Virus record (IMG/VR): IMGVR_UViG_3300030060_008569
Coordinates: 1-64,000 of that record
Length of the DNA stretch: 64,000 bases
Direction: 5' to 3' (one strand)
Origin: a virus
The notes below the pieces were generated by a model. That model did no database searches. It saw only the letters and a program-made list of their open reading frames with translations, and was not told the DNA's origin. Made by a program: the position numbers and the translations under genes. This document shows, in pieces, positions 25,803 to 47,807 of this stretch (position 1 is the first letter of the stretch; each line of letters begins with the position of its first letter).

Positions 25803-26393
25803 TTATCTTAAGGAGTTTACTAATTTTGCGGGCAACTCATTAGTTTCTAAAACATTTCCAAGGTCATCTGTTTTAAATCTAAAAGCAGTCTTTTCCTGTC
25901 CGGTAGATTCAAACATTATTTCTTTTTTAACAATCTCTTTGTAGGGTTTTACTTTTATTAAAGTAATAGTAGCCTTAACAGGTGCGTCATCCATTTTTGA
26001 ATAAACGTGGACAGTAACTATGTTTTCTCCTTGTATGACACCTCTAAAAGAAACAACCTCTTCATTGTAATTTACAACAGTTCCCGCCACGCCTTGTCCT
26101 AAACTGTTATTTCTACTTTTACCTAAAGCATCATGGTCTAAGCTAATTAAACTTCCATCTCCACCTTCCCTATTATTAAAGCTGACTATATGACCTGATG
26201 CAGCTTTAACATAAATATCTAAATCATCATTACTTTCCCCATCCCAAGTTAAGACAACCTCATAAATAACATTGGGTGGCCTAGCCTTAGTCTTTTCCTC
26301 CTCGGTTTTTAAAAGAAATAAAATTGCCACCAACATCAGAAGGCAACAAAACAATACATCAATAAACGGCCTAAATGAAAAGAACCTCCTCAT
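25803..26393 (-). CDS. ExbD-like membrane protein with periplasmic beta domain, 196 aa
   Basis: N-terminal RPFIDVLFCCLLMLVAILFL matches the single ExbD/TolR helix, with an Asp at residue 12 in the position of the essential proton-path Asp. After a short linker comes VLTWDGESNDDLDIYV and GGDGSLISLDHDALG, resembling DUF2135-type extracytoplasmic domains. An ExbB-like partner lies two genes upstream. Together they may form a proton-driven motor. ATGA overlap with the ferredoxin gene. Confidence 0.7.
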   Translation of the reverse strand: MRRFFSFRPFIDVLFCCLLMLVAILFLLKTEEEKTKARPPNVIYEVVLTWDGESNDDLDIYVKAASGHIVSFNNREGGDGSLISLDHDALGKSRNNSLGQGVAGTVVNYNEEVVSFRGVIQGENIVTVHVYSKMDDAPVKATITLIKVKPYKEIVKKEIMFESTGQEKTAFRFKTDDLGNVLETNELPAKLVNSLR

Positions 26394-26617
26394 CCGTCAT
26401 CACCTATCGCCTCTACTGGACAGTTTTCCAAAGCCTCTGCACAAAGGTCTGCTTCACCCTGCTCTTCAGGCTGCTTGTAAACGTAAGAATAGCCATCCTC
26501 ATGGTTGGTGAAGTTGTCTGGTGCTAGTTCACGGCATAAATTACAATCAATACACTCAGTATCGACATAGAACTTACCAGCTACATTATCTTCGTATTTA
26601 TCTTCTTTAGCTGCCAT
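26390..26617 (-). CDS. ferredoxin, 75 aa
   Basis: CxxCxxC (C22, C25, C28) and a CP motif (C66-P67) near the end define a single-cluster ferredoxin; an extra Cys at 59 lies close to C66. Acidic throughout. It lies between ExbD- and ExbB-like genes and near proline dehydrogenase. Electron partner unknown. Confidence 0.88.
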   Translation of the reverse strand: MAAKEDKYEDNVAGKFYVDTECIDCNLCRELAPDNFTNHEDGYSYVYKQPEEQGEADLCAEALENCPVEAIGDDG

Positions 26618-27092
26618 TTGAATTTTCCTCTAACTTAAACTTTAATATCATAAGTTGAACTTGCAAGGGTAAACTAAAAATAATGCCACAAATTGTTGTG
26701 TAAAAGGCGGTATTTAACCCCTCTTTCAGCCCCGCAACGATTTCAGAAGTAGGCATGGAACTGTCCAAGCTACCTTTTGTTGCTATCACCAAACCAATAA
26801 TTGTACCTAAAAGTCCCAAAGAAAAGAAATGCTCCGCCGTAAACCAGCCCATGTCTGCCCTTTTTGTTAAATAAGTTACAGCCTCTTTCTTCTTTCTTTT
26901 ATTTATCTTATCTGATAAGAAACATAACCTTCCAACATATAAAGACATAATTACATATAAAGACATAATTAGAATTGAAAGATGAGAAAGGTCGTTTGTT
27001 ATTATTTCGCTGATTATTTTATTTTGCTCTGCAAAGAATATAGCAGTAGCTACAATAGCATTTAAAAGGAACCATTTGGTAAAAGTGTTCAT
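26607..27092 (-). CDS. ExbB/TolQ/MotA-like proton channel protein, 161 aa
   Basis: Three hydrophobic helices. The second includes FFSLGLLGTIIGLVIA and the third LNTAFYTTICGIIFSLPLQV, the family signature. The length is short compared with ExbB (about 240 aa), with a reduced cytoplasmic domain. Partner of the ExbD-like gene. Confidence 0.75.
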   Translation of the reverse strand: MNTFTKWFLLNAIVATAIFFAEQNKIISEIITNDLSHLSILIMSLYVIMSLYVGRLCFLSDKINKRKKKEAVTYLTKRADMGWFTAEHFFSLGLLGTIIGLVIATKGSLDSSMPTSEIVAGLKEGLNTAFYTTICGIIFSLPLQVQLMILKFKLEENSNGS

Positions 27093-27104: not shown

Positions 27105-27944
27105 TTATTTACACCATTCTTTTACAATATTTTTAATTACAAAGGCTAAATTCTTCCATTCTTTAAGTCTCCGTAGAGTATAGGGGAGCCAATTTTCGCC
27201 AAAAGGCACATATATTCTAACTTTATGACCTTTATTTTTGTAATTTTCCTGCAAATCTCTTCTTATTCCGTATAAAAATTCGTAGTCAAAAAACTTGGGA
27301 TTCGGGATTAGCTCCTCTATATCTTCTAACAACTCTTCGTCATGGGTAGCTATGGCTGGTTTATTTGCCTTATTTGCGTACAAACTTGCAGCATAGTTAT
27401 AAAAACAGCCACTAATATCAAAATAGTGTTGGTAAGCTATTTTTTCACTCTCCTTGTACGCCCCTTTAACCAAGCGAACCGATATGTTACTTTTTATAAG
27501 TTTTTGCAGGTCAACTGCGGTTCTTAAAAGGTTGGCTTGAATGGCAACGCCAACATTTCCGAACCTTTTATTTAAAAGGATGGCTAAGTCTATGGTTATA
27601 TCGGTCACACGCGAATCTTCCATATCTAAACGAATTGTATGGCCTTTTTTATTTGCAAGTTTTGCTATGAAGGCCATGAGGCCAATAGCCATTTTCGGAT
27701 TTATATGTACGCCTAATTGTGAAGGCTTTATAGATATATCAATTTTTTCATTTGAAAAAGAATTTATAATTCTTATGTATTGATGTTTCGCTTTGTAACA
27801 GTCTAACGAGTTTTTACTTTCTTCCCCCACATAATCAACAGACACTTCGTAACCATCTTCAATCAGTTTATTTATTACTGGCTTGGCCGATTCAAGGGTG
27901 TGACCAGCAATAAACCTCTTTGCCAGTGGATACAAAAATCTCAT
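27105..27944 (-). CDS. proline dehydrogenase (PRODH), 279 aa
   Basis: FAD-dependent oxidation of proline to P5C. Visible motifs: IRLDMED, VRLVKGAYKES, FEFLYGIRR-type (YEFLYGIRRDLQ) and RIYVPFGENWLPYTLRRL, which bind the substrate. Length equals a stand-alone bacterial PRODH, and no P5C-dehydrogenase domain is fused. ATGA overlap with ornithine cyclodeaminase, which makes proline, so the pair would run ornithine to P5C. Confidence 0.9.
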   Translation of the reverse strand: MRFLYPLAKRFIAGHTLESAKPVINKLIEDGYEVSVDYVGEESKNSLDCYKAKHQYIRIINSFSNEKIDISIKPSQLGVHINPKMAIGLMAFIAKLANKKGHTIRLDMEDSRVTDITIDLAILLNKRFGNVGVAIQANLLRTAVDLQKLIKSNISVRLVKGAYKESEKIAYQHYFDISGCFYNYAASLYANKANKPAIATHDEELLEDIEELIPNPKFFDYEFLYGIRRDLQENYKNKGHKVRIYVPFGENWLPYTLRRLKEWKNLAFVIKNIVKEWCK

Positions 27945-28876
27945 TTTAATTGATTCCTCAAGTAAAGATTGTAAACTAAAATTCCAATAGCAATATCTTC
28001 TAGTGATACTCCAGTAGAATCAAAGACAGATACTCCCGCCTCTAAACTAATTTGCTTGTTGTTTTTAATAACGTGTCGCAAAGACCAAGTGTTCAAGTCT
28101 TGCCCAAATCTATATTGCAATTCTCCAGAATGAAACGCTTGAGCAGGGTCATCACATATTATATTTGAAGCTCCAGCAATTACATTTTTCATAAGTTCCC
28201 TTTTTCCTACTGCATCTGCACCTACTGCATTAACATGACAGTTATCTTTTAGGTAATTAAAATCTAAATATGGCTCTGTAGATGGAGTAAGTGTTGTTAC
28301 CAAGTCTGCTTGCCTGACAGCTTCTTTTACGTTTGATGGGTATTTAATTACATTTAAACTTTTTGGAATCTTATCAGCAAGTTTTTGAATTGCTTCTTCG
28401 TTTTTATCGTAAAGAGAAACTGTTTTAATATCTGGGAAAACGCTCCTGTAAGCTAAAAAATGATAGTAAGCCTGAAGGCCGCAGCCGACAAATGCAATTT
28501 CTCTTATATTATTTGGCAAACAATACTTAGCAGCTATGGCCGAGGTGGCCGCAGTTCTATAAGCAGTAAGGGTGGTGCAATCCATAGCCATTAATGGCTG
28601 ACCCGTCTCTCTATCGTTAAGAAGAAGTGTTCCTAGTGTTGTTGGTAAAGAGTTAACTAAATGATTGTTTGGATAAACCCCAATCCATTTTAAGCAAGCA
28701 TAATCTCCTAAAGCCGCTGGCATTGCACGAAAATCTCCTTGTGTGTGAGTATCTAGGTAAATCTTGGGAACCATCTTTGCAGACTCATCTAGGAAAGCGC
28801 TTTCGATAGAAGGTATTATTTTACCCCACTCTTTGTCGAGTAAGTGTGCAACTCCCAAGTCGTTTAATTGCTTCAC
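27941..28876 (-). CDS. ornithine cyclodeaminase / mu-crystallin family, 311 aa
   Basis: NAD-binding Rossmann fold (VGCGLQAYYHF, near 130-140), MDCTTLTAYRTAATSAIAAKY and DSTGVSLEDIA are family hallmarks. OCD converts ornithine to proline and ammonia; related family members are alanine dehydrogenase or tauropine-type enzymes. The coupling to PRODH argues for the ornithine activity. Confidence 0.88.
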   Translation of the reverse strand: MKQLNDLGVAHLLDKEWGKIIPSIESAFLDESAKMVPKIYLDTHTQGDFRAMPAALGDYACLKWIGVYPNNHLVNSLPTTLGTLLLNDRETGQPLMAMDCTTLTAYRTAATSAIAAKYCLPNNIREIAFVGCGLQAYYHFLAYRSVFPDIKTVSLYDKNEEAIQKLADKIPKSLNVIKYPSNVKEAVRQADLVTTLTPSTEPYLDFNYLKDNCHVNAVGADAVGKRELMKNVIAGASNIICDDPAQAFHSGELQYRFGQDLNTWSLRHVIKNNKQISLEAGVSVFDSTGVSLEDIAIGILVYNLYLRNQLK

Positions 28877-30084: not shown

Positions 30085-30654
30085 TTATGCGCTTTCTATT
30101 TTATTAAAATCAGAATATGGCGGCTTGGCTTGCCATTGAACCTGCCTACCATTTTCATTATACCAATGGTGGGCAATGTGTATCTCCACTTCTTTTGTAG
30201 GCTTGAACCGATACGCTCCAGCGACAAGCTGGGGGCTGTCGTTTGTATCGTTTTCAGACCTAATTACATGATAGACATCATAAATAGAATCTATCACATC
30301 GGTGTCATCTCTATCTCTGATATGGGAATCAATAAAGTTTTCCGCCGCTTCCAAAGACGGAAAGTGCAATTTTCCGCCATCCATGAAGCCATGATAAACA
30401 GTCTCTTGCTCCTGTTCAAAAGTCATGTACTCTCTTTCGGGTGCGAAAGAATCAGAAGTGTTTTTACTAAAGACCCACTGGCCCTGCCCACGCTCGTAAC
30501 AATAAACCCTGTAATTCCAATTAAAGCCAACCTCTCCGGTTTCCCCCTCGTGCCCCTTCGGGTCTTGCTCCCCCTCTTCGTATTGACAAGTCACCGTCCA
30601 AGTGGTTAAAGCTCCCATAACAGAGGCCCCTTTAATAAAATCCCTTCTATTCAT
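30085..30654 (-). CDS. Tat-signal protein, possibly lipoprotein, 189 aa
   Basis: N-terminus MNRRDFIKGASVMGAL fits a twin-arginine signal (RRxFxK), followed by TWTVTC, which could be a lipobox-like Cys. The mature part is acidic and Tyr/Trp-rich. Export of a folded protein by the host Tat system is implied. The -10 box is 7 nt from ATG. Confidence 0.65.
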   Translation of the reverse strand: MNRRDFIKGASVMGALTTWTVTCQYEEGEQDPKGHEGETGEVGFNWNYRVYCYERGQGQWVFSKNTSDSFAPEREYMTFEQEQETVYHGFMDGGKLHFPSLEAAENFIDSHIRDRDDTDVIDSIYDVYHVIRSENDTNDSPQLVAGAYRFKPTKEVEIHIAHHWYNENGRQVQWQAKPPYSDFNKIESA

Positions 30655-32021: not shown

Positions 32022-32195
32022 TTACCAAAATGGGCCATACTCACCCCAAAAAGAATCCCCCGTTAGAACGCACCATATCATCCGCCCCCCTAAATAAACA
32101 ATAGCACCTATAACGGGTAAGGCTGGTATTAAGATGCTAATACCAATGACAACGAGAGTAATAATAAGAATTGCTGATAGAATATCTTTAAGCAT
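32022..32195 (-). CDS. small membrane protein, 57 aa
   Basis: ATG 32195 overlaps the last codons of speD. Two hydrophobic segments with a Gly-rich turn (ILSAILIITLVVIGISILIP, then IGAIVYLGGRMIWCVL). Role unknown. Confidence 0.6.
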   Translation of the reverse strand: MLKDILSAILIITLVVIGISILIPALPVIGAIVYLGGRMIWCVLTGDSFWGEYGPFW

Positions 32196-32574
32196 GAAGT
32201 TTAACAACCTCGTCAATATTTTTAGCTCTATTTAAAACTATAAACTTATAGTCATCAAAATCAAATTTTGAATTTAACATTTCAACGGCTTTATCAATAT
32301 CTAATTCTCCGCAAGTGTAAAAATCAAACTGTATTAGCGCGGGGTCTTGCTCGTCCCATATATGAAATGCCATGTGGCTTGTTTTAAGTAAGCAACAGGC
32401 AGTCACGCCTTTATTTCCCTCGTCCTCTACATAAGAAACTACAGGCTTGGATGCAAGCTGCATGCCATTGCCCATAATAAAATCTTCTATCCAAAGACTG
32501 GTTTCAACAAGGTCATCAGCGGTGGGAACTTTTTTAATCGTTCCTTTTAGTATTAGGTGATTATGTTGTAGCAT
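32188..32574 (-). CDS. speD: S-adenosylmethionine decarboxylase (SpeD-like), 128 aa
   Basis: TSHMAFHIWDE (65-75) and FDFYTCGELD (84-93) match the prokaryotic SpeD pattern. Ser66 would be the self-cleavage site giving the pyruvoyl group, with His71 and Cys88 catalytic. Makes decarboxylated SAM for spermidine synthesis. No spermidine synthase is seen here, so the phage would use the host enzyme. Cyanophages also carry speD. Confidence 0.82.
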   Translation of the reverse strand: MLQHNHLILKGTIKKVPTADDLVETSLWIEDFIMGNGMQLASKPVVSYVEDEGNKGVTACCLLKTSHMAFHIWDEQDPALIQFDFYTCGELDIDKAVEMLNSKFDFDDYKFIVLNRAKNIDEVVKLHA

Positions 32575-35530: not shown

Positions 35531-36679
35531 TTAAAATTGAATCCCTAATTCTTTCATGTTCTCATTAAATTTATCAAAAGGTACATCCGAATAGTTTAAT
35601 ACTATTGGCAGCGAAATATCACCCCCTCGGTTCTGAACCTTCCTTTCGTCAAAGAATCCCTCTGCCATTAATTTAGCCACTGAAGATATGGAAAATGCGG
35701 TTGACTTTTGCATGGCGGTAAATTGCAAGTCGTAGCCTACAATGATTTCTTTTTTCCAAGTAACATTGCCACCACTCACCTCTACCTTTAACAGCACGAC
35801 ATCTCCAGTGTGATTTTCGCAGTTGTTAAAAATATCTTGTAAGCATTCTTTAGACAGTTTGGTATTTCTAATTAAAAGCCTAACCATATCTCTGTGGCCT
35901 TTATATCTTATAGTTTTATAAGAACAATTAGACACATCTCTTTTTGCCATGCTGGCGATTGAATGGGAAGCTCCTCCACTTGTGTAAAAGGCCTCTAGCT
36001 CTTCATCCCCCAGTAAATCAAAAGTCACTGGCTCTAGCCCATCCATGCCCTTTACCTTTTCTATGAGTCCGTTATTTAAAACCTCACAGTCGTCTTCATA
36101 TTCATTTATAAGCCCATCTACAGACCAAGTACAAGCATAATTTAAAGGTGGGTTTATTTTTATAGCAGGGATGCCACCGACCATCATCTTAACATTTTCA
36201 ACCTCGTGATGTAACTCTGAATAACCTTGCTCTGCTAAAATATTTACCCAACCGGGGGCCAATCCCAAGTCTGTAAAGATAGGTTTAGTTGCGTTCTCTT
36301 TAGCGTAGTCATTTATGTTTTGAGAAACGTCAACTCTACCCCCCAAGTCACAGTAGCGAATGCCGTTGTCTATACAATACTTTGCTACAGTTTCAGTTTG
36401 ATAATAAGGTAAACTACTGATAACAATATCTGGTTTTACTTGAGCCTCTAAACCTTTACAAATATCTTCTGAGTTACTAACAATAAAAAACTCATTGCGA
36501 GGTGCTCCCACGATGTTATTACCCTCTTCGTCTTGCGTCTGTTCGTAATTGACTTTTTTAGGAATGTTCTCTGCCGCATCTGGATTAGTGTCCATTCCAA
36601 CCACATGAAATCCGAATTTGTCCATTGCATAAGCAATGGCGGTTCCCATTCTTCCAACACCTAATACTATAGCTTTCAT
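35531..36679 (-). CDS. saccharopine/lysine-6-dehydrogenase-like enzyme, 382 aa
   Basis: NAD(P)-binding GxGxxG (VLGVGRMGTAIAY, 6-18), then SSLPYYQTETVAKYC, TDLGLAPGWVNILAEQG and CTWSVDGLINEYED, all typical of the saccharopine dehydrogenase family and closest in style to lysine 6-dehydrogenase. The expected reaction oxidises lysine to piperideine-6-carboxylate. It shares an operon with an aldehyde dehydrogenase able to take that product. Carboxynorspermidine or saccharopine activities cannot be excluded. Confidence 0.78.
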   Translation of the reverse strand: MKAIVLGVGRMGTAIAYAMDKFGFHVVGMDTNPDAAENIPKKVNYEQTQDEEGNNIVGAPRNEFFIVSNSEDICKGLEAQVKPDIVISSLPYYQTETVAKYCIDNGIRYCDLGGRVDVSQNINDYAKENATKPIFTDLGLAPGWVNILAEQGYSELHHEVENVKMMVGGIPAIKINPPLNYACTWSVDGLINEYEDDCEVLNNGLIEKVKGMDGLEPVTFDLLGDEELEAFYTSGGASHSIASMAKRDVSNCSYKTIRYKGHRDMVRLLIRNTKLSKECLQDIFNNCENHTGDVVLLKVEVSGGNVTWKKEIIVGYDLQFTAMQKSTAFSISSVAKLMAEGFFDERKVQNRGGDISLPIVLNYSDVPFDKFNENMKELGIQF

Positions 36680-37048: not shown

Positions 37049-37252
37049 TTATTTGTAAACTTTACGAGTTCTTGGTCCGGATTCATCATCAGCTTCAGCA
37101 GACTCTTGTGAATCTCTGTATTGGTGAATTTCAGAAACCCTAGCCATTAAAAACTCCCTATCCTCTTGGGATAATTCTTTGGTATCTGACCAAGGCATAC
37201 CTAAAGTAGTCATAATATGCCAATTTTCTTCTTGTGTACTCATTTTACTCAT
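37049..37252 (-). CDS. hypothetical acidic protein, 67 aa
   Basis: TAATG overlap with the aldehyde dehydrogenase stop selects ATG 37252. Helical and acidic. Not recognised. Confidence 0.6.
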   Translation of the reverse strand: MSKMSTQEENWHIMTTLGMPWSDTKELSQEDREFLMARVSEIHQYRDSQESAEADDESGPRTRKVYK

Positions 37253-38787
37253 TATTTCATTCCTTGTGGAAAAGTTAATTTGTCTGCGTGGTTAACAGTC
37301 CAGCTAATTTCATGGGTAACAGCCCTGAATGTTCTTGCTGCACTAGGAAATCCATTGCCAGATTTTTTAACACCGCCGAAAGCTAAGTGCGATTCAGCAG
37401 CGATTGAACCTCCGTTCCAGTATATCATGCCAGCATCGCATTCGTCTCTCATTACTCTTGCTTTTCTAAAGTCATTTGTCAACACTCCAACAGCTAAACC
37501 ATATTCAGTATCATTGTAAATTCTAATAGCATCCTCGACTGTATCAAAGGGAATTATTGCTACATGAGGCCCGAACACTTCATTCCTTAGAAAACCTGCA
37601 TCGCAGTTAGTCCATTCTCTTTTATAAACCATTGGAGTGCTGTAGTATGCTCCGTTTTCACCAGTGTAAACAGGGTCAAGTAACACTTCAGCTTTTGGGT
37701 CTGAGTGTACCAGTTTATTCATGAATCTTATCTTACTAAACCCTTGCTCATTAATAATTGGGCCATAGTATATATCTTCGTTTGGTACTAGCTCTTCCCA
37801 AACCATTCCATCTGGACAACCAGATGAGCCAAGCATAGATTTGAATGGGTTCCCTGTTTTTATTTGTTTAGCTTTTGCAGCAAATTTCTCGGAAAACTCA
37901 TGGTATATACTTCGCTGTACAATCATTCTACCAGATGATACGCAACGCTGACCAGACAGCTTAAATGCACTAGCAATAGAAGCCTCAATGGCTAAATCAA
38001 TTTCAACGTCATCAAAAACAATGCAAGCGGATTTACTACCTAATTCGCATGAGGTAGTTTTGTGCCATGATTCAGCAGCAACTTTACGAATGTGTTGTCC
38101 GACATCAGCACTACCAGTAAAACAGATGTGGTCGCAATTACCCCTAACCAAAAAATCGCCAGTAGCACCATCGCCATGCACCAAGTTAATGACCCCACGA
38201 GGGATGCCAGCCTCCTCATAAATTTGAACAGCGGCTTGAGTTGACATTGGTGCGTCTTCACTTGGTTTAATTACAATAGTATTCCCCTCTACTAAAGCTG
38301 GGGCAGCGTTCCAAAACATGCCTATTGCCAGCGGAAAGTTAAATGGAGTTACAATAGCTATTACACCTTTAGGCTTTCGTAGCATATACGCATCTTTTTC
38401 AGCAATTTCTGAAGAAACAGCTTCGCCATGACTATAACGGCCAGAACCAAAAGCAAACTGTGCCATGTGCAAGGCTTCATTAACCTCTGCGATACTTTCG
38501 TTGTAGTTTTTCCCTGTTTCAAGTGAAATAATCGTAGCTAATTTATTTTTATCCCTTTCAATTATTTGAGCAACCTTATTTAAATAATCTGAACGGGTAA
38601 ATCTACTAACCTTTTTCCAAGTTTTAAAAGCCTCTCTAGCAGAAAGTAGCGCCTTGCCAACCTCATCCTTGCAACTTAAGGGGAACGCACCTTGCGCCTT
38701 TCCGGTTGCAGGGTTAATTTTAGTATACATGTCGGCGGTAGCTCGCCACACGCCATTGATATAGTTCCTACCTTCGAAATCCCTCAT
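37252..38787 (-). CDS. NAD(P)-dependent aldehyde dehydrogenase, 511 aa
   Basis: Start at ATG 38787 (ATGA overlap with the VOC gene). Classic ALDH: VTPFNFPLAIGMFWNAAPAL, FTGSADVGQHI, catalytic Glu in CELGSKS, catalytic Cys in SGQRCVSSGRM, EVFGPHVAI and a late FGGVKKSGNG. Its context suggests aminoadipate-semialdehyde or glutamate-semialdehyde oxidation, but substrate cannot be read from sequence alone. Complete length. Confidence 0.93.
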   Translation of the reverse strand: MRDFEGRNYINGVWRATADMYTKINPATGKAQGAFPLSCKDEVGKALLSAREAFKTWKKVSRFTRSDYLNKVAQIIERDKNKLATIISLETGKNYNESIAEVNEALHMAQFAFGSGRYSHGEAVSSEIAEKDAYMLRKPKGVIAIVTPFNFPLAIGMFWNAAPALVEGNTIVIKPSEDAPMSTQAAVQIYEEAGIPRGVINLVHGDGATGDFLVRGNCDHICFTGSADVGQHIRKVAAESWHKTTSCELGSKSACIVFDDVEIDLAIEASIASAFKLSGQRCVSSGRMIVQRSIYHEFSEKFAAKAKQIKTGNPFKSMLGSSGCPDGMVWEELVPNEDIYYGPIINEQGFSKIRFMNKLVHSDPKAEVLLDPVYTGENGAYYSTPMVYKREWTNCDAGFLRNEVFGPHVAIIPFDTVEDAIRIYNDTEYGLAVGVLTNDFRKARVMRDECDAGMIYWNGGSIAAESHLAFGGVKKSGNGFPSAARTFRAVTHEISWTVNHADKLTFPQGMK

Positions 38788-39341
38788 TTTCTTGTACTTT
38801 CCATTAATCCTTTTACGTTGTCCTTGCAAAACCCATCTCCAGTTCTATTTATAAGCTCATAAATGACTCCCGTCAACTCAGAAGGCTTTGTAAATACCTG
38901 AACTAAACCTTCGCACCTCAAGGGTGCGCTCGAATAAAATTCAGCATAACCAGCATTAAGCCACATTTTCATTGTAGCATCAACATCTTCTACTTGATAA
39001 GCTATATGATGAACTCCGGGTCCATTTTCCTCAACCCAGTCACCCACAATAGAGCCTTTGGGTCCGTCACTAACGAATATTTCAGGGGGAGAGTGGTAGG
39101 GGTGGAATTGAGCCTCAACTTTTTGACCTTTAGAGTCTGGAGCGTCAGCTAAAAGCACCTCCCATTCTGAGATTTCAGGATGCCTCTCTTCTGGTGGGAG
39201 TAAAGCTAGGCACTCCGCCTTAGTCCCATCACTGAAATCTATTTCAAATTCTGTGCCAAGCGTATACCCCAAGCACCTTTTAAGAAATTTGGCTGTTTTT
39301 TTCCTGTTTTTTACTCTGTAGGCTATATGGTCTAACCTCAT
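38784..39341 (-). CDS. VOC-superfamily (glyoxalase/HPPD-like) protein, 185 aa
   Basis: Start at ATG 39341, 7 nt after the -10 box. Two beta-alpha-beta-beta-beta repeats: LDHIAYRVKNRKKTAKFL near the start and VHHIAYQVEDVDATMKMW later, each with a metal-ligand His, then GVIYELINR with a Glu. Metal-dependent lyase, isomerase or dioxygenase-type chemistry; the exact substrate is unknown. First gene of the ALDH operon. Confidence 0.75.
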   Translation of the reverse strand: MRLDHIAYRVKNRKKTAKFLKRCLGYTLGTEFEIDFSDGTKAECLALLPPEERHPEISEWEVLLADAPDSKGQKVEAQFHPYHSPPEIFVSDGPKGSIVGDWVEENGPGVHHIAYQVEDVDATMKMWLNAGYAEFYSSAPLRCEGLVQVFTKPSELTGVIYELINRTGDGFCKDNVKGLMESTRK

Positions 39342-39348
39342 TTTAAAT

Positions 39349-39377
39349 ATTATATCATATAAGAAATGTTTTTTCAA
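39349..39377 (-). promoter_or_regulatory. sigma-70 promoter of the VOC/ALDH operon, leaderless
   Basis: TTGAAA (39372-39377), 17-nt spacer, TATAAT (39349-39354), 7 nt to ATG 39341. It drives VOC, ALDH, 67-aa, HAD, dehydrogenase and bS21 genes, which have no larger gap. Confidence 0.8.
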
Positions 39378-41403: not shown

Positions 41404-42165
41404 ATGGAAATATACTACGAACATTATTTTGGGAGTATGACGCAACATGATATGATTGTATGTTGGGTTCTCGCTAAGAATGTTTTGCCTCAAGAGGAGA
41501 AGTTCGCCTTAGAAAACGGCTGGCGAGAAGTTTATGAGACAGAACAAGGCGTATGGGTTCAAGCAAGAAGCGTAAGATTGAAGACTTCTTCGTTTAGAAC
41601 TAATAAAAAAGTTAGAAAAATGCTCAATCCAGCTACTGGTATTGAAAGTAATTTTAAACCCGCTTCTCAGTGTAATTTAGAGGAGCTTAATGAGGTATAT
41701 CACAAATATGCAAAATACAAAAATTTTCCAATAGAAAAAAACTACATAGAAGATTGTCTTGTGGATATAGACTCAAAAATAATAGGAGAGTATAGAGAAG
41801 ATGGACTGCTTAGAGCTTACGTAATATGTAGAATGCATGATGAGTCAGCAAAGGCTATGACATCGCTACAGTTTTGTTGGGACTACGATAAACCCCAGAT
41901 GTTTTTGGGCAAATTCAGCATGGTCAAAGAGCTACAATTCGCAATAGAAAATAAGCTAGACTGGGTTTACATAGGGGATGGGTATCAAAAAATTTGCGAG
42001 TACAAATGTAGTTTTCCGGGGTTTCAATTTTGGACGGGACGAAAGTGGATAAGTGATATAAACTTATACAAAGAACTTATAAAAAATGACGACAAAGTAA
42101 AAACAGTTCAAGAATTAGACAAGTTATCAAAAGATTATATGGAAAACAAAACATTTGAAAAGTAA
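41404..42165 (+). CDS. aminoacyl-tRNA-protein transferase-like (Bpt/Ate1 style) GNAT protein, 253 aa
   Basis: The C-terminal half has LDWVYIGDGYQKICEYKCSFPGFQFWTGRKW, which resembles the leucyl/arginyl-tRNA-protein transferase pattern in which an N-degron residue is added to protein N-termini. The N-terminal Cys-rich region of true Ate1 is missing. A FemX-type peptidyltransferase is an alternative. It is near PAP2 and tmRNA genes. Confidence 0.55.
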   Translation: MEIYYEHYFGSMTQHDMIVCWVLAKNVLPQEEKFALENGWREVYETEQGVWVQARSVRLKTSSFRTNKKVRKMLNPATGIESNFKPASQCNLEELNEVYHKYAKYKNFPIEKNYIEDCLVDIDSKIIGEYREDGLLRAYVICRMHDESAKAMTSLQFCWDYDKPQMFLGKFSMVKELQFAIENKLDWVYIGDGYQKICEYKCSFPGFQFWTGRKWISDINLYKELIKNDDKVKTVQELDKLSKDYMENKTFEK

Positions 42166-42871: not shown

Positions 42872-43274
42872 TGGTGGAGGCGAGGGGAGTCGAACCCCTG
42901 TCTTTGGAGCCTATCGGCTCAGACTTCTACAAGCTTAGTCGGTGTTAAATACTCGCTTGGCATGTCACCGACAAACGGCCTACACGAGTTTTGAGCAACC
43001 TTTTATCCTAGTGCTGCTCGGCCCTAGTTTTTTGCCCGCTATCGACGCCCTAGCTCCTTAACGAGCATCCAGAGTAGGACGGGTAACTTACGCAGTTACA
43101 GCAGCTTCTTCAGCCCAGCCGAACTTAGCGAGAATCGCATCAGCTTCAGCAAGTGAAGGAGCCATATCAACATTATTGGCAGTTGAATTACCTTGATAGA
43201 TGATTTAAGAGGCCGACTATCATCCTCTGCTTGCTATCTGGCGTAAGAACCCAAATCGAATCCAGTACGCCCCC
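42872..43274 (-). ncRNA. ssrA: tmRNA (one-piece), 30-aa proteolysis tag
   Basis: tRNA-like ends are complete: 5' GGGGGCG with TGGATTCGAT, and 3' GGGGTTCGACTCCCC then CGCCTCC plus ACCA, with acceptor pairing. The tag frame from GCC (43180) to TAA (43088) encodes 30 residues beginning ANNVDMAP and ending EEAAVTA. Rescues stalled ribosomes and tags nascent proteins for proteolysis. Only 7 nt separate it from the upstream ECF sigma stop; a candidate promoter AATCAAAATGTGTAACAAT (43278-43296) overlaps that gene. Confidence 0.93.
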
Positions 43275-47081: not shown

Positions 47082-47807
47082 TTAATAGTTATTTAATAAT
47101 ACTCTTATAGTTTCTTGGGGCTCAGTTACCGGCCAGTAAAGGCCATCTCCATTTTTTCGTATGTCCTCACATATCTCGTAATCATTCCCGCCAGCATAAC
47201 ACTTGTCTCCAAAGAAAATAATTTCTGAGTCTTTGTTGTTTTCCCTTATCCACTGAGAAGCTTGAGATTTGTCGCTCCCCCTTGGGTTTATGTCTATACT
47301 TATTTGGCCTCCTATAGAAACATCTATATCGGGGAATTGAGACCTTACAAATGAACTTATGGCGGCCCTTTCTTTATTAGCCTTGTCCCAATCAAAATAC
47401 CTTTGTCTTTCTGGTTTATCTGCATTTCTGCCTACAATAGAAAAGTTAAGCATTCCAGAGCGATGCTCTATGTGGTTCCCTGTTTTAGTGTCGTAATTGG
47501 TTTCTAATAAAAAATCATTTAATATATTCAATAGTTTAGCTGGAACGTCCCATTTGTTTTTGTAAACGTAAGAATCTCTACTGCAATCGTAAAATTCGTT
47601 AGCCATAGAAGGAAATATACCGGCGCACCTAGACAAAATGCTATTGGGTAGTTGCTCTTTTATTTTTTTCATATCACTACCAGAAACTAAATAAACCTTT
47701 TTACCTGACATCCAAGTAACAAACTGCATTGTGAACGAAGTGCCTGCTTTACCTCTGGGTGGGGTTAAAGTTCCATCCACATCAAATAAAAAAAATCTAG
47801 AATTCAT
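47082..47807 (-). CDS. phosphomannomutase (eukaryotic PMM type, HAD fold), 241 aa
   Basis: DVDGTLTPP at the start, then SGSDMKKIKEQL, GNHIEHRSGMLNFSIVGR, GGQISIDINPRGSDKSQ and FFGDKCYAGGNDYEI are the PMM signature. It converts mannose-6-P to mannose-1-P for GDP-sugar synthesis. This family is mainly eukaryotic; bacterial and phage copies are less common. It lies with sugar transferases in this block. Confidence 0.88.
   Translation of the reverse strand: MNSRFFLFDVDGTLTPPRGKAGTSFTMQFVTWMSGKKVYLVSGSDMKKIKEQLPNSILSRCAGIFPSMANEFYDCSRDSYVYKNKWDVPAKLLNILNDFLLETNYDTKTGNHIEHRSGMLNFSIVGRNADKPERQRYFDWDKANKERAAISSFVRSQFPDIDVSIGGQISIDINPRGSDKSQASQWIRENNKDSEIIFFGDKCYAGGNDYEICEDIRKNGDGLYWPVTEPQETIRVLLNNY

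What the first reader, a model, noticed from the sequence alone, without database searches (positions are those of the whole stretch)
27105..28876. Phage ornithine cyclodeaminase - proline dehydrogenase pair
The genes overlap by 4 nt and would convert ornithine to proline and then to P5C, giving electrons to quinone. I know of no established phage auxiliary pathway with this pair. It may feed the respiratory chain or raise proline/glutamate supply during infection.
Basis: partly seen in the sequence, partly recalled or inferred. Interest (0 to 1): 0.75.

Follow-up and report, generated by a model that had tools for sequence, protein, structure and literature searches.

The report
Phage genes for burning amino acids
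An uncultured phage carries a gene for burning the amino acid proline next to a second amino-acid enzyme that was first read as ornithine cyclodeaminase but looks more like an alanine dehydrogenase, and related phages carry a larger set of lysine- and arginine-degrading genes, which suggests that these viruses feed on their host's amino acids during infection.

Summary
Two overlapping minus-strand genes (27105-27944, 27941-28876) lie on an IMG/VR phage contig between phage genes (rIIA/B, sigma factor, ribonucleotide reductase). The downstream gene encodes a complete monofunctional proline dehydrogenase: checked active-site residues are kept in 22 of 22 phage homologues, which form one viral clade.

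The upstream gene is in the ornithine cyclodeaminase/mu-crystallin family but is probably not an ornithine cyclodeaminase. Arg45 and Glu56 of the Pseudomonas enzyme (Glu56 holds ornithine's side-chain amine) are Lys and Arg, as in Archaeoglobus alanine dehydrogenase, in 14 of 15 phage rows; profile and predicted structure agree.

The pair belongs to a larger set. Relatives carry a lysine-6-dehydrogenase-like enzyme downstream of an aldehyde dehydrogenase (52 of 76 ALDH loci); sister phages carry an ArgZ-type arginine dihydrolase and a lysine-6-transaminase-like enzyme. Best reading: phage-encoded amino-acid oxidation giving quinol, NADH and glutamate or aminoadipate.

Each pair gene also occurs without the other, so an obligate ornithine-proline-P5C route is unlikely. 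Ten literature searches found no description of this set in phages. Host, substrates and expression are unknown.

The parts
27105..27944 (-). Monofunctional FAD-type proline dehydrogenase (PRODH), 279 aa
   Evidence: PF01619 8e-28; best PDB matches Thermus 2ekg 4e-37 and Deinococcus 4h6q 7e-36; active-site columns identical in 22 of 22 phage rows; overlaps the upstream gene by 4 nt
27941..28876 (-). NAD(P)-dependent amino-acid dehydrogenase of the OCD/mu-crystallin family, archaeal alanine-dehydrogenase type (Lys38, Arg50, Lys63, Arg107, Asp221), 311 aa
   Evidence: PF02423 5e-67; profile vs PDB: AlaDH 1omo 277 bits, OCD 1u7h 151 bits; signature and tree; AF2 model pLDDT 87.4, 1omo Z 40.2 at 36% id, OCD 1x7d Z 38.7 at 27% id
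35531..36679 (-). Saccharopine-dehydrogenase-superfamily enzyme, most like L-lysine 6-dehydrogenase, 382 aa
   Evidence: PF16653 4e-25; profile vs PDB 3abi (PH1688) 142 bits, next 81; AF2 model pLDDT 88.3: 3abi Z 38.4 at 25% id, carboxyspermidine DH Z 34.6 at 13% id
37252..38829 (-). NAD(P)-dependent aldehyde dehydrogenase, proposed P6C/AASA and P5C/GSA dehydrogenase, 525 aa
   Evidence: PF00171 6e-121; Cys296 and Glu262 (catalytic by recalled ALDH motifs) invariant in 17 of 17 aligned phage rows; LysDH-like gene downstream on the same strand in 52 of 76 ALDH loci
38784..39377 (-). Glyoxalase/VOC-family protein, overlaps the ALDH start
   Evidence: PF13669 1e-10; with ALDH in 53 loci
32188..32574 (-). 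SpeD-like (AdoMet decarboxylase family) protein, possibly an ornithine/arginine decarboxylase; not part of the conserved module
   Evidence: PF02675 1e-12; TIGR03330 47.4 bits, below cut-off 75.65; in 1 of 115 loci (weak 25-27% matches also in L008, L009)
26390..26617 (-). Small ferredoxin (single 4Fe-4S domain family), downstream in the same gene run; link to the pair unknown
   Evidence: PF13370 3e-19
26607..27092 (-). MotA/TolQ/ExbB-like membrane protein directly downstream of ProDH; link to the pair unknown
   Evidence: PF01618 2e-6; matched in 20 of 115 loci

Best explanation
The pair encodes (a) a proline dehydrogenase that oxidises proline to P5C and passes electrons through FAD to the membrane quinone pool, and (b) an NAD(P)-linked amino-acid dehydrogenase of the archaeal alanine-dehydrogenase type, most likely alanine to pyruvate + NH3 + NADH, rather than an ornithine cyclodeaminase. 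They are accessory parts of a modular amino-acid-oxidation set. Its core is an aldehyde dehydrogenase fed by a lysine-6-dehydrogenase-like enzyme; in sister phages by a lysine-6-transaminase-like enzyme with an arginine dihydrolase. The ALDH would turn P6C/AASA into 2-aminoadipate and P5C/GSA into glutamate. During infection this would burn host amino acids for NADH and quinol while supplying glutamate. Shown: genes, families, conserved active sites, purifying selection, recurrence and linkage. Inferred: substrates, direction, expression, benefit.
For: ProDH: PF01619 match, Thermus/Deinococcus PRODH as best PDB hits; 12 checked columns identical in 22 of 22 phage rows, and phage rows on one side of a branch with SH-aLRT 100; dN/dS 0.13-0.36 in the 13 closest pairs with a finite ratio. 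OCD-family gene: Lys38/Arg50/Asp221 as in A. fulgidus AlaDH (Lys41/Arg52/Asp219), not Arg45/Glu56 of OCD; signature KRKRD in 14 of 15 phage rows, beside 16 bacterial/archaeal rows with the same signature and apart from the canonical OCD group; AlaDH best by profile and structure. Wider module: LysDH-like fold; LysDH downstream of ALDH on the same strand in 52 of 52 loci that have both, of 76 with ALDH; ArgZ in 18 and lysine-6-transaminase-like genes in 17 of the loci screened, next to ALDH (identities). A 595-kb huge-phage record, LR756511, holds both the ALDH (47% id) and the transaminase (58% id). ProDH + OCD-family and LysDH + ALDH lie on the same record in 6 (window, G001, G003, G004, G025, G031) of 9 records with ProDH + OCD-family; the other three are a fragment (G005, 31 kb), a 68-kb piece (G009) and G010, which begins about 16 kb upstream of its ProDH.
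Against: No NCBIfam equivalog cut-off is met: AlaDH 197.5 of 409 bits, OCD 146.5 of 350, Thermus ProDH 169 of 500, lysine-6-transaminase 479.8 of 520.8, arginine dihydrolase 225 of 450; the ALDH scores similarly against many aldehyde families (alpha-KGSA 311, GSA 286, P6C 258 bits), so its substrate is open. ProDH and the OCD-family gene each occur without the other: 0 of 38 distant OCD-family loci have ProDH in the DNA held, and ProDH on the 100-kb G002 and 70-kb G008 has no OCD-family partner. The other ProDH phages (G011-G017, G020) show none of the other genes, but their contigs are 9-42 kb. Host, expression and enzyme activity are unknown. A. rhizogenes OCD also departs at Arg45 and Glu56 (PMC3840593), so the residue test is not absolute.
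Confidence: 0.55

Rival explanations
1. One reading: the OCD-family enzyme makes proline from ornithine, ProDH oxidises it to P5C.
For: PF02423 membership; the two genes are adjacent or overlapping in the window, G001/G010, G003 and G009, in both orders; Lys63, Arg107 and Asp221 of the OCD active site are present; a SpeD-like gene hints at ornithine use nearby.
Against: Arg45 and Glu56 of OCD are Lys and Arg in 14 of 15 phage rows; AlaDH is the best relative by profile and structure; each gene often occurs without the other.
Confidence: 0.15
2. The OCD-family enzyme is a cyclic-ketimine reductase (pyrroline-2- or piperideine-2-carboxylate to proline or pipecolate) that feeds ProDH.
For: Thermococcus Pyr2C reductase 6t3e is second by profile (193 bits) and ties with AlaDH by structure (Z 39.7 against 40.2); the product would suit ProDH.
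Against: 6t3e lacks the Arg50 and GAD-x-x-GK-x-EL features that the phage proteins share with AlaDH; 26% against 36% identity.
Confidence: 0.15
3. The enzymes serve to remove proline, lysine or ornithine, or to make a special product (pipecolate, aminoadipate, P6C) for host takeover, stress protection or virion or DNA modification, not to gain energy.
For: Lysine enzymes (LysDH, transaminase) and a VOC-family protein recur with the ALDH; the function of many neighbours is unknown.
Against: No modifying enzyme that uses these products was identified; ProDH and dehydrogenases give reducing power as an unavoidable product (inference).
Confidence: 0.1
4. The pair is bacterial contamination or a misassembly rather than phage genes.
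For: Several 'phage' database hits to ProDH and OCD look like bacterial contigs (L002 by its annotation, L003 and L004 by their ORFs).
Against: The pair lies between phage genes; ProDH homologues form a viral clade and recur in other viral records, some with a terminase; GC of both genes (0.35-0.38) is close to the contig (0.387).
Confidence: 0.02

Closest known systems
Monofunctional PRODH of Thermus (2ekg) and Deinococcus (4h6q)
   Same: Same family, length and active-site residues; best PDB hits of the phage ProDH
   Different: Phage rows form their own clade; no activity shown; Thermus equivalog cut-off not met
A. fulgidus alanine dehydrogenase AF1665 (1omo)
   Same: OCD/mu-crystallin fold, Lys41/Arg52/Asp219 set
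   Different: 36% identity; TIGR02371 cut-off not met; substrate untested
P. putida ornithine cyclodeaminase (1u7h/1x7d)
   Same: Same fold; Lys69, Arg112, Asp228 equivalents present
   Different: Arg45 and Glu56 replaced by Lys and Arg; 27% identity
P. horikoshii L-lysine dehydrogenase (3abi)
   Same: Best profile and structure match of the phage SDH-family protein
   Different: 25% identity; role in lysine to P6C not shown
PutA, bifunctional proline dehydrogenase/GSA dehydrogenase
   Same: Same two chemical steps as phage ProDH plus ALDH
   Different: Separate phage genes about 9 kb apart in the window; ALDH family assignment unresolved
Lysine 6-transaminase plus P6C dehydrogenase pathway; ArgZ arginine dihydrolase (pathways recalled)
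   Same: Sister phages carry an ALDH-ArgZ-transaminase gene run
   Different: Below NCBIfam cut-offs; not found in the window
Viral polyamine enzymes (PMC9992855, passages read)
   Same: Phage-encoded enzymes on ornithine/arginine-derived metabolites; SpeD homologues
   Different: In that paper the terms cyclodeaminase, saccharopine and aldehyde dehydrogenase do not occur and proline only as 'proline-rich'

Membership tests
Proline dehydrogenase (PF01619) | Pfam match above cut-off | tested here: met
   98.2 bits, cut-off 27
Proline dehydrogenase (PF01619) | Active-site residues (Lys73, Asp107, Gln136, Arg157, Lys160, Tyr163, His201, Arg258, Arg259, Glu262; roles recalled from PutA/TtPRODH) | tested here: met
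   identical in 22 of 22 phage rows
Proline dehydrogenase (PF01619) | Proline:quinone oxidoreductase activity | not testable with these tools
   needs purified protein
Thermus-type ProDH (NF045947 equivalog) | score over the curated cut-off | tested here: not met
   169.1 of 500 bits
Ornithine cyclodeaminase (P. putida type) | OCD/mu-crystallin family match | tested here: met
   PF02423 226.5 bits
Ornithine cyclodeaminase (P. putida type) | Arg45 and Glu56 | tested here: not met
   Lys38 and Arg50 in the window protein; KR in 14 of 15 phage rows; roles from PMC3497308 and PMC3840593
Ornithine cyclodeaminase (P. putida type) | PRK07589 equivalog cut-off | tested here: not met
   146.5 of 350 bits
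Archaeal alanine dehydrogenase (AF1665 type) | Lys41/Arg52/Asp219 set (role of these residues recalled) | tested here: met
   aligned
Archaeal alanine dehydrogenase (AF1665 type) | TIGR02371 equivalog cut-off | tested here: not met
   197.5 of 409.15 bits
Archaeal alanine dehydrogenase (AF1665 type) | Alanine oxidation | not testable with these tools
   needs assay
L-lysine 6-dehydrogenase | closest solved relative is a lysine dehydrogenase | tested here: met
   3abi first by profile and by structure
L-lysine 6-dehydrogenase | lysine oxidation to P6C | not testable with these tools
   needs assay
Phage auxiliary metabolic gene | on a viral contig, flanked by phage genes | tested here: met
   rIIA/B, clamp loader, sigma, RNR; terminase in relatives
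Phage auxiliary metabolic gene | expressed and useful in infection | not testable with these tools
   no transcript or infection data

The most novel reading that the evidence does not exclude
An uncultured, probably marine phage lineage (and at least one huge phage) carries an exchangeable amino-acid catabolic module: an ALDH hub fed by lysine 6-dehydrogenase or lysine 6-transaminase, arginine dihydrolase, proline dehydrogenase and an alanine-dehydrogenase-type enzyme. By it the virus burns its host's free amino acids for reducing power and glutamate, a heterotrophic counterpart of cyanophage carbon-metabolism genes.
Probability: 0.4. Interest if true: 0.75.

Novelty: new variant of a known kind. 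Interest (0 to 1): 0.58.

Why it matters
Most phage metabolic genes that are well described serve photosynthesis, nucleotides, sulfur or central carbon (recalled). A viral clade of proline dehydrogenases, plus lysine- and arginine-degrading enzymes clustered around one aldehyde dehydrogenase, would show phages taking over amino-acid respiration in heterotrophic hosts. That would bear on carbon and nitrogen release from infected cells, and it can be tested directly with purified enzymes. It also warns that 'ornithine cyclodeaminase' as a family name is not a function: a residue check changes the pathway.

Tried and rejected
Single-sequence scans of viral contigs with ProDH, OCD and rIIA found no relatives; profile scans did. 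Hits in the annotated phage collection were set aside as evidence for phage origin: MaAM05 (L002) has murJ, bioD and pcnB beside its ProDH; L003 and L004 look bacterial by their ORFs (judged by eye); the remaining hit records, Staphylococcus, Listeria, Enterococcus, Acinetobacter and one further fecal 'Bacteriophage sp.', were not examined and are assumed to be host DNA or prophage.

OCD-ProDH neighbourhood in bacteria: of 80 bacterial/archaeal OCD-family loci, only L140 and L182 have a ProDH match in the flanks, both in long PutA-like frames, so bacterial synteny gives no support for the pair. Host: not resolved. The nearest cellular OCD-family proteins are mostly from Dehalococcoidia, but 0 of the 10 Chloroflexota genomes among the 32 searched had a ProDH match at E 1e-10, so no host is proposed. 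Foldseek-based tables are second looks; absence from them is not evidence. A carboxynorspermidine or homospermidine role for the LysDH-like protein was considered and ranked lower. The SpeD-like gene as part of the module was rejected: 1 of 115 loci, weak matches in L008 and L009. Gp23 search: 2 of 36 records, both in the ProDH-only group. That the contigs are marine is recalled from IMG data-set numbers and suggested by the gp23 kin, not tested.

Negative or contrary results: 0 of 38 distant OCD-family loci with ProDH; OCD-family matches in 15 of 50 and ProDH in 22 of 50 viral records, records that were themselves chosen for ProDH, ALDH or OCD; lysine-6-transaminase in 3 of 50. The counts include duplicates of the same phage (for example L042/L043, L087/L088, L092/L093), and includes L001 (the window itself) and L002-L004. 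Rows left out: bacterial rows were thinned from 80 to 30 before the tree, and phage OCD-family rows found later are not in it; phage ProDH rows found are not in the tree; both trees are 'quick' ones with long branches.

Full report
Observation. The two ORFs are real, at the stated places, and overlap by 4 nt. The contig is a 65.9-kb virus record with phage genes on both sides of the pair: clamp loader, rIIB, rIIA and sigma factor at 3-11 kb and RNR at 60-64 kb, plus a tmRNA and tRNA-Arg. The pair sits in a run of minus-strand genes that continues into a MotA/ExbB-like gene, a ferredoxin and further genes.

Proline dehydrogenase. PF01619 scores 98 bits; Thermus and Deinococcus PRODH are the best solved relatives. 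Among 22 phage rows all 12 checked columns, which include the recalled substrate and flavin residues and the C-terminal Arg-Arg-x-x-Glu, are identical. The phage rows are one side of a branch with SH-aLRT 100 against 11 cellular rows (few cellular rows, quick tree). Closely related phage pairs show dN/dS of 0.13-0.36. Profile scans returned 33 and 75 viral loci, overlapping sets. They fall into at least two phage groups: the window's group, and phages without the other module genes, two of which (G017, G020) carry a T4-type gp23, that of G017 67% identical to Pelagibacter phage HTVC008M. In the 8 records of the ProDH-only group (G011-G017, G020) no other module gene was found. In some IMG/VR records (L309-L322) the more distant ProDH match lies in a frame that also holds an ALDH domain, as in PutA; the 8 such frames measured are 950-973 codons; whether those records are viral was not checked.

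The OCD-family partner. Family membership is clear, specificity is not. P. putida OCD uses Arg45, Lys69 and Arg112 for the carboxylate, Glu56 for the delta-amine and Asp228 for the alpha-amine (PMC3497308 and PMC3840593, passages read). Aligned through 1u7h and 1omo, the phage protein has Lys38 and Arg50 in place of Arg45 and Glu56, which is the A. fulgidus alanine dehydrogenase set (Lys41, Arg52, Asp219). In the tree of 46 rows, 14 of 15 phage rows carry KRKRD and group together (SH-aLRT 90), next to 16 bacterial/archaeal KRKRD rows. The other viral-contig row, L115, lies with the canonical OCD rows (7 of 30 bacterial rows with Glu, plus L004); the remaining 7 bacterial rows have other residues. 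The profile prefers AlaDH (277 bits) over Pyr2C reductase (193), mu-crystallin (160) and OCD (151). The AlphaFold2 model (pLDDT 87.4) gives 1omo Z 40.2, rmsd 1.8, 302 aligned, 36% identity and OCD Z 38.7, rmsd 2.0, 304 aligned, 27%; Z values of 1omo and 6t3e are tied. No NCBIfam equivalog cut-off is met. The natural substrate is therefore open, with alanine the leading guess.

Linkage of the two genes. Among 50 viral records chosen for ProDH, ALDH or OCD, the OCD-family profile matched 15 and ProDH 22; 8 have both (G001 and G010 share identical ProDH and OCD-family proteins), plus the window. They are adjacent or overlapping in the window and G003 (OCD first) and in G001/G010 and G009 (ProDH first), and 1.6-9 kb apart in G004, G005, G025 and G031. 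Both orders suggest a link by function rather than one frozen arrangement. Against an obligate pathway, G002 (100 kb) and G008 (70 kb) have ProDH and no OCD-family gene, G022 (104 kb) the reverse, and of 49 OCD-family loci from the second scan, ProDH lies in the flanks of 8 of the 11 closest and 0 of the 38 others.

The wider module. At 35.5-39.4 kb the contig carries a lysine-6-dehydrogenase-like gene, an aldehyde dehydrogenase and a glyoxalase-family gene. A scan with the ALDH returned 74 viral loci. Over the loci held, ALDH matched 76, the glyoxalase-family protein 53 and the LysDH-like protein 52 of 115; in all 52 loci with both ALDH and LysDH the latter follows on the same strand, 3 nt to 8.9 kb downstream. 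In a sister group the ALDH is followed by an ArgZ-type arginine dihydrolase (18 loci) and a lysine-6-transaminase-like enzyme (17 loci); L088 has glyoxalase, ALDH, ArgZ, transaminase, a 141-aa protein, fructose-bisphosphate aldolase, LysDH-like and OCD-family genes in one run. A transaminase and a dehydrogenase that both make P6C from lysine, next to the same ALDH, are the best clue to the ALDH's substrate; by sequence alone it is unresolved. The huge phage record LR756511 has both ALDH and transaminase, though far apart, and another huge phage record, LR756504, has a weak LysDH-like match.

Phage status of relatives. Terminase matches over the family cut-off occur in 13 of 36 records, among them G001, G009, G010, G025 and G050 of the window's group; the G001 protein is a terminase large subunit by PHROGs and about 25% identical to isolates. 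The window's lineage has no close isolate in the collection searched; its rIIA too matches the listed isolates only at 27-36%.

Literature. Ten searches in the held open-access library found no paper that describes these genes in phages, going by listings and the passages named here; no paper held the terms OCD + phage + auxiliary metabolic or saccharopine dehydrogenase + phage + auxiliary metabolic. PMC10732071 (one passage read) reports a larger share of 'lysine degradation' AMGs in large Bay of Bengal phages; PMC13205691 (passages) lists aminoadipate semialdehyde synthase and lysine decarboxylase among gut phage AMGs. PMC11360552, PMC7029224 and PMC4053976 (term searches) do not mention proline, ornithine, saccharopine or lysine. 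Subscription journals and preprints are not covered.

Verdict. A confirmed observation with a corrected enzyme assignment and a much wider context. The kind (phage auxiliary metabolic genes) is known; this set of amino-acid-degrading genes appears not to be described in what could be searched.

Noticed in passing
26607-27092 and 25803-26393: An ExbB/MotA-like protein and a conserved partner without a Pfam match (N-terminal hydrophobic segment, ExbD-like only by gene position) recur near each other in many of these phages (20 and 21 of 115 loci); the first has weak ZorA matches. Function unknown.
   Followed up: partly
32188-32574: SpeD-like protein with Thr before the likely cleavage-site Ser, Phe before His and Tyr before Thr-Cys-Gly. 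PMC10407285 (passages) names Gln, Thr, Phe, Tyr as diagnostic of SpeD-derived ornithine decarboxylases, but I could not see the figure, so this is only a lead.
   Followed up: partly
42872-43274: Phage-encoded tmRNA (Rfam RF00023, 138.6 bits; ARAGORN tag AEADAILAKFGWAEEAAVTA).
   Followed up: no
L088:9523-16988: Co-directional run of glyoxalase, ALDH, arginine dihydrolase, lysine-6-transaminase-like, 141-aa protein, class I fructose-bisphosphate aldolase, LysDH-like and OCD-family genes in a 103-kb viral record.
   Followed up: partly
L309-L322: Some IMG/VR records (up to 342 kb) carry a PutA-like frame with Pro_dh and Aldedh domains; viral status not checked.
   Followed up: partly
30085-30654: Protein with a twin-arginine signal-like start (PF10518 20.2 bits, TIGR01409 17 bits), recurring in 10 of 115 loci.
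   Followed up: no
41404-42165: Protein with a weak arginyl-tRNA-protein transferase (ATE_C) match, 30.8 bits.
   Followed up: no
47082-47807: Eukaryote-type phosphomannomutase family match (PF03332, 122.7 bits) in a phage.
   Followed up: no
L002, L003, L004: Records labelled as phages that look like bacterial DNA.
   Followed up: partly
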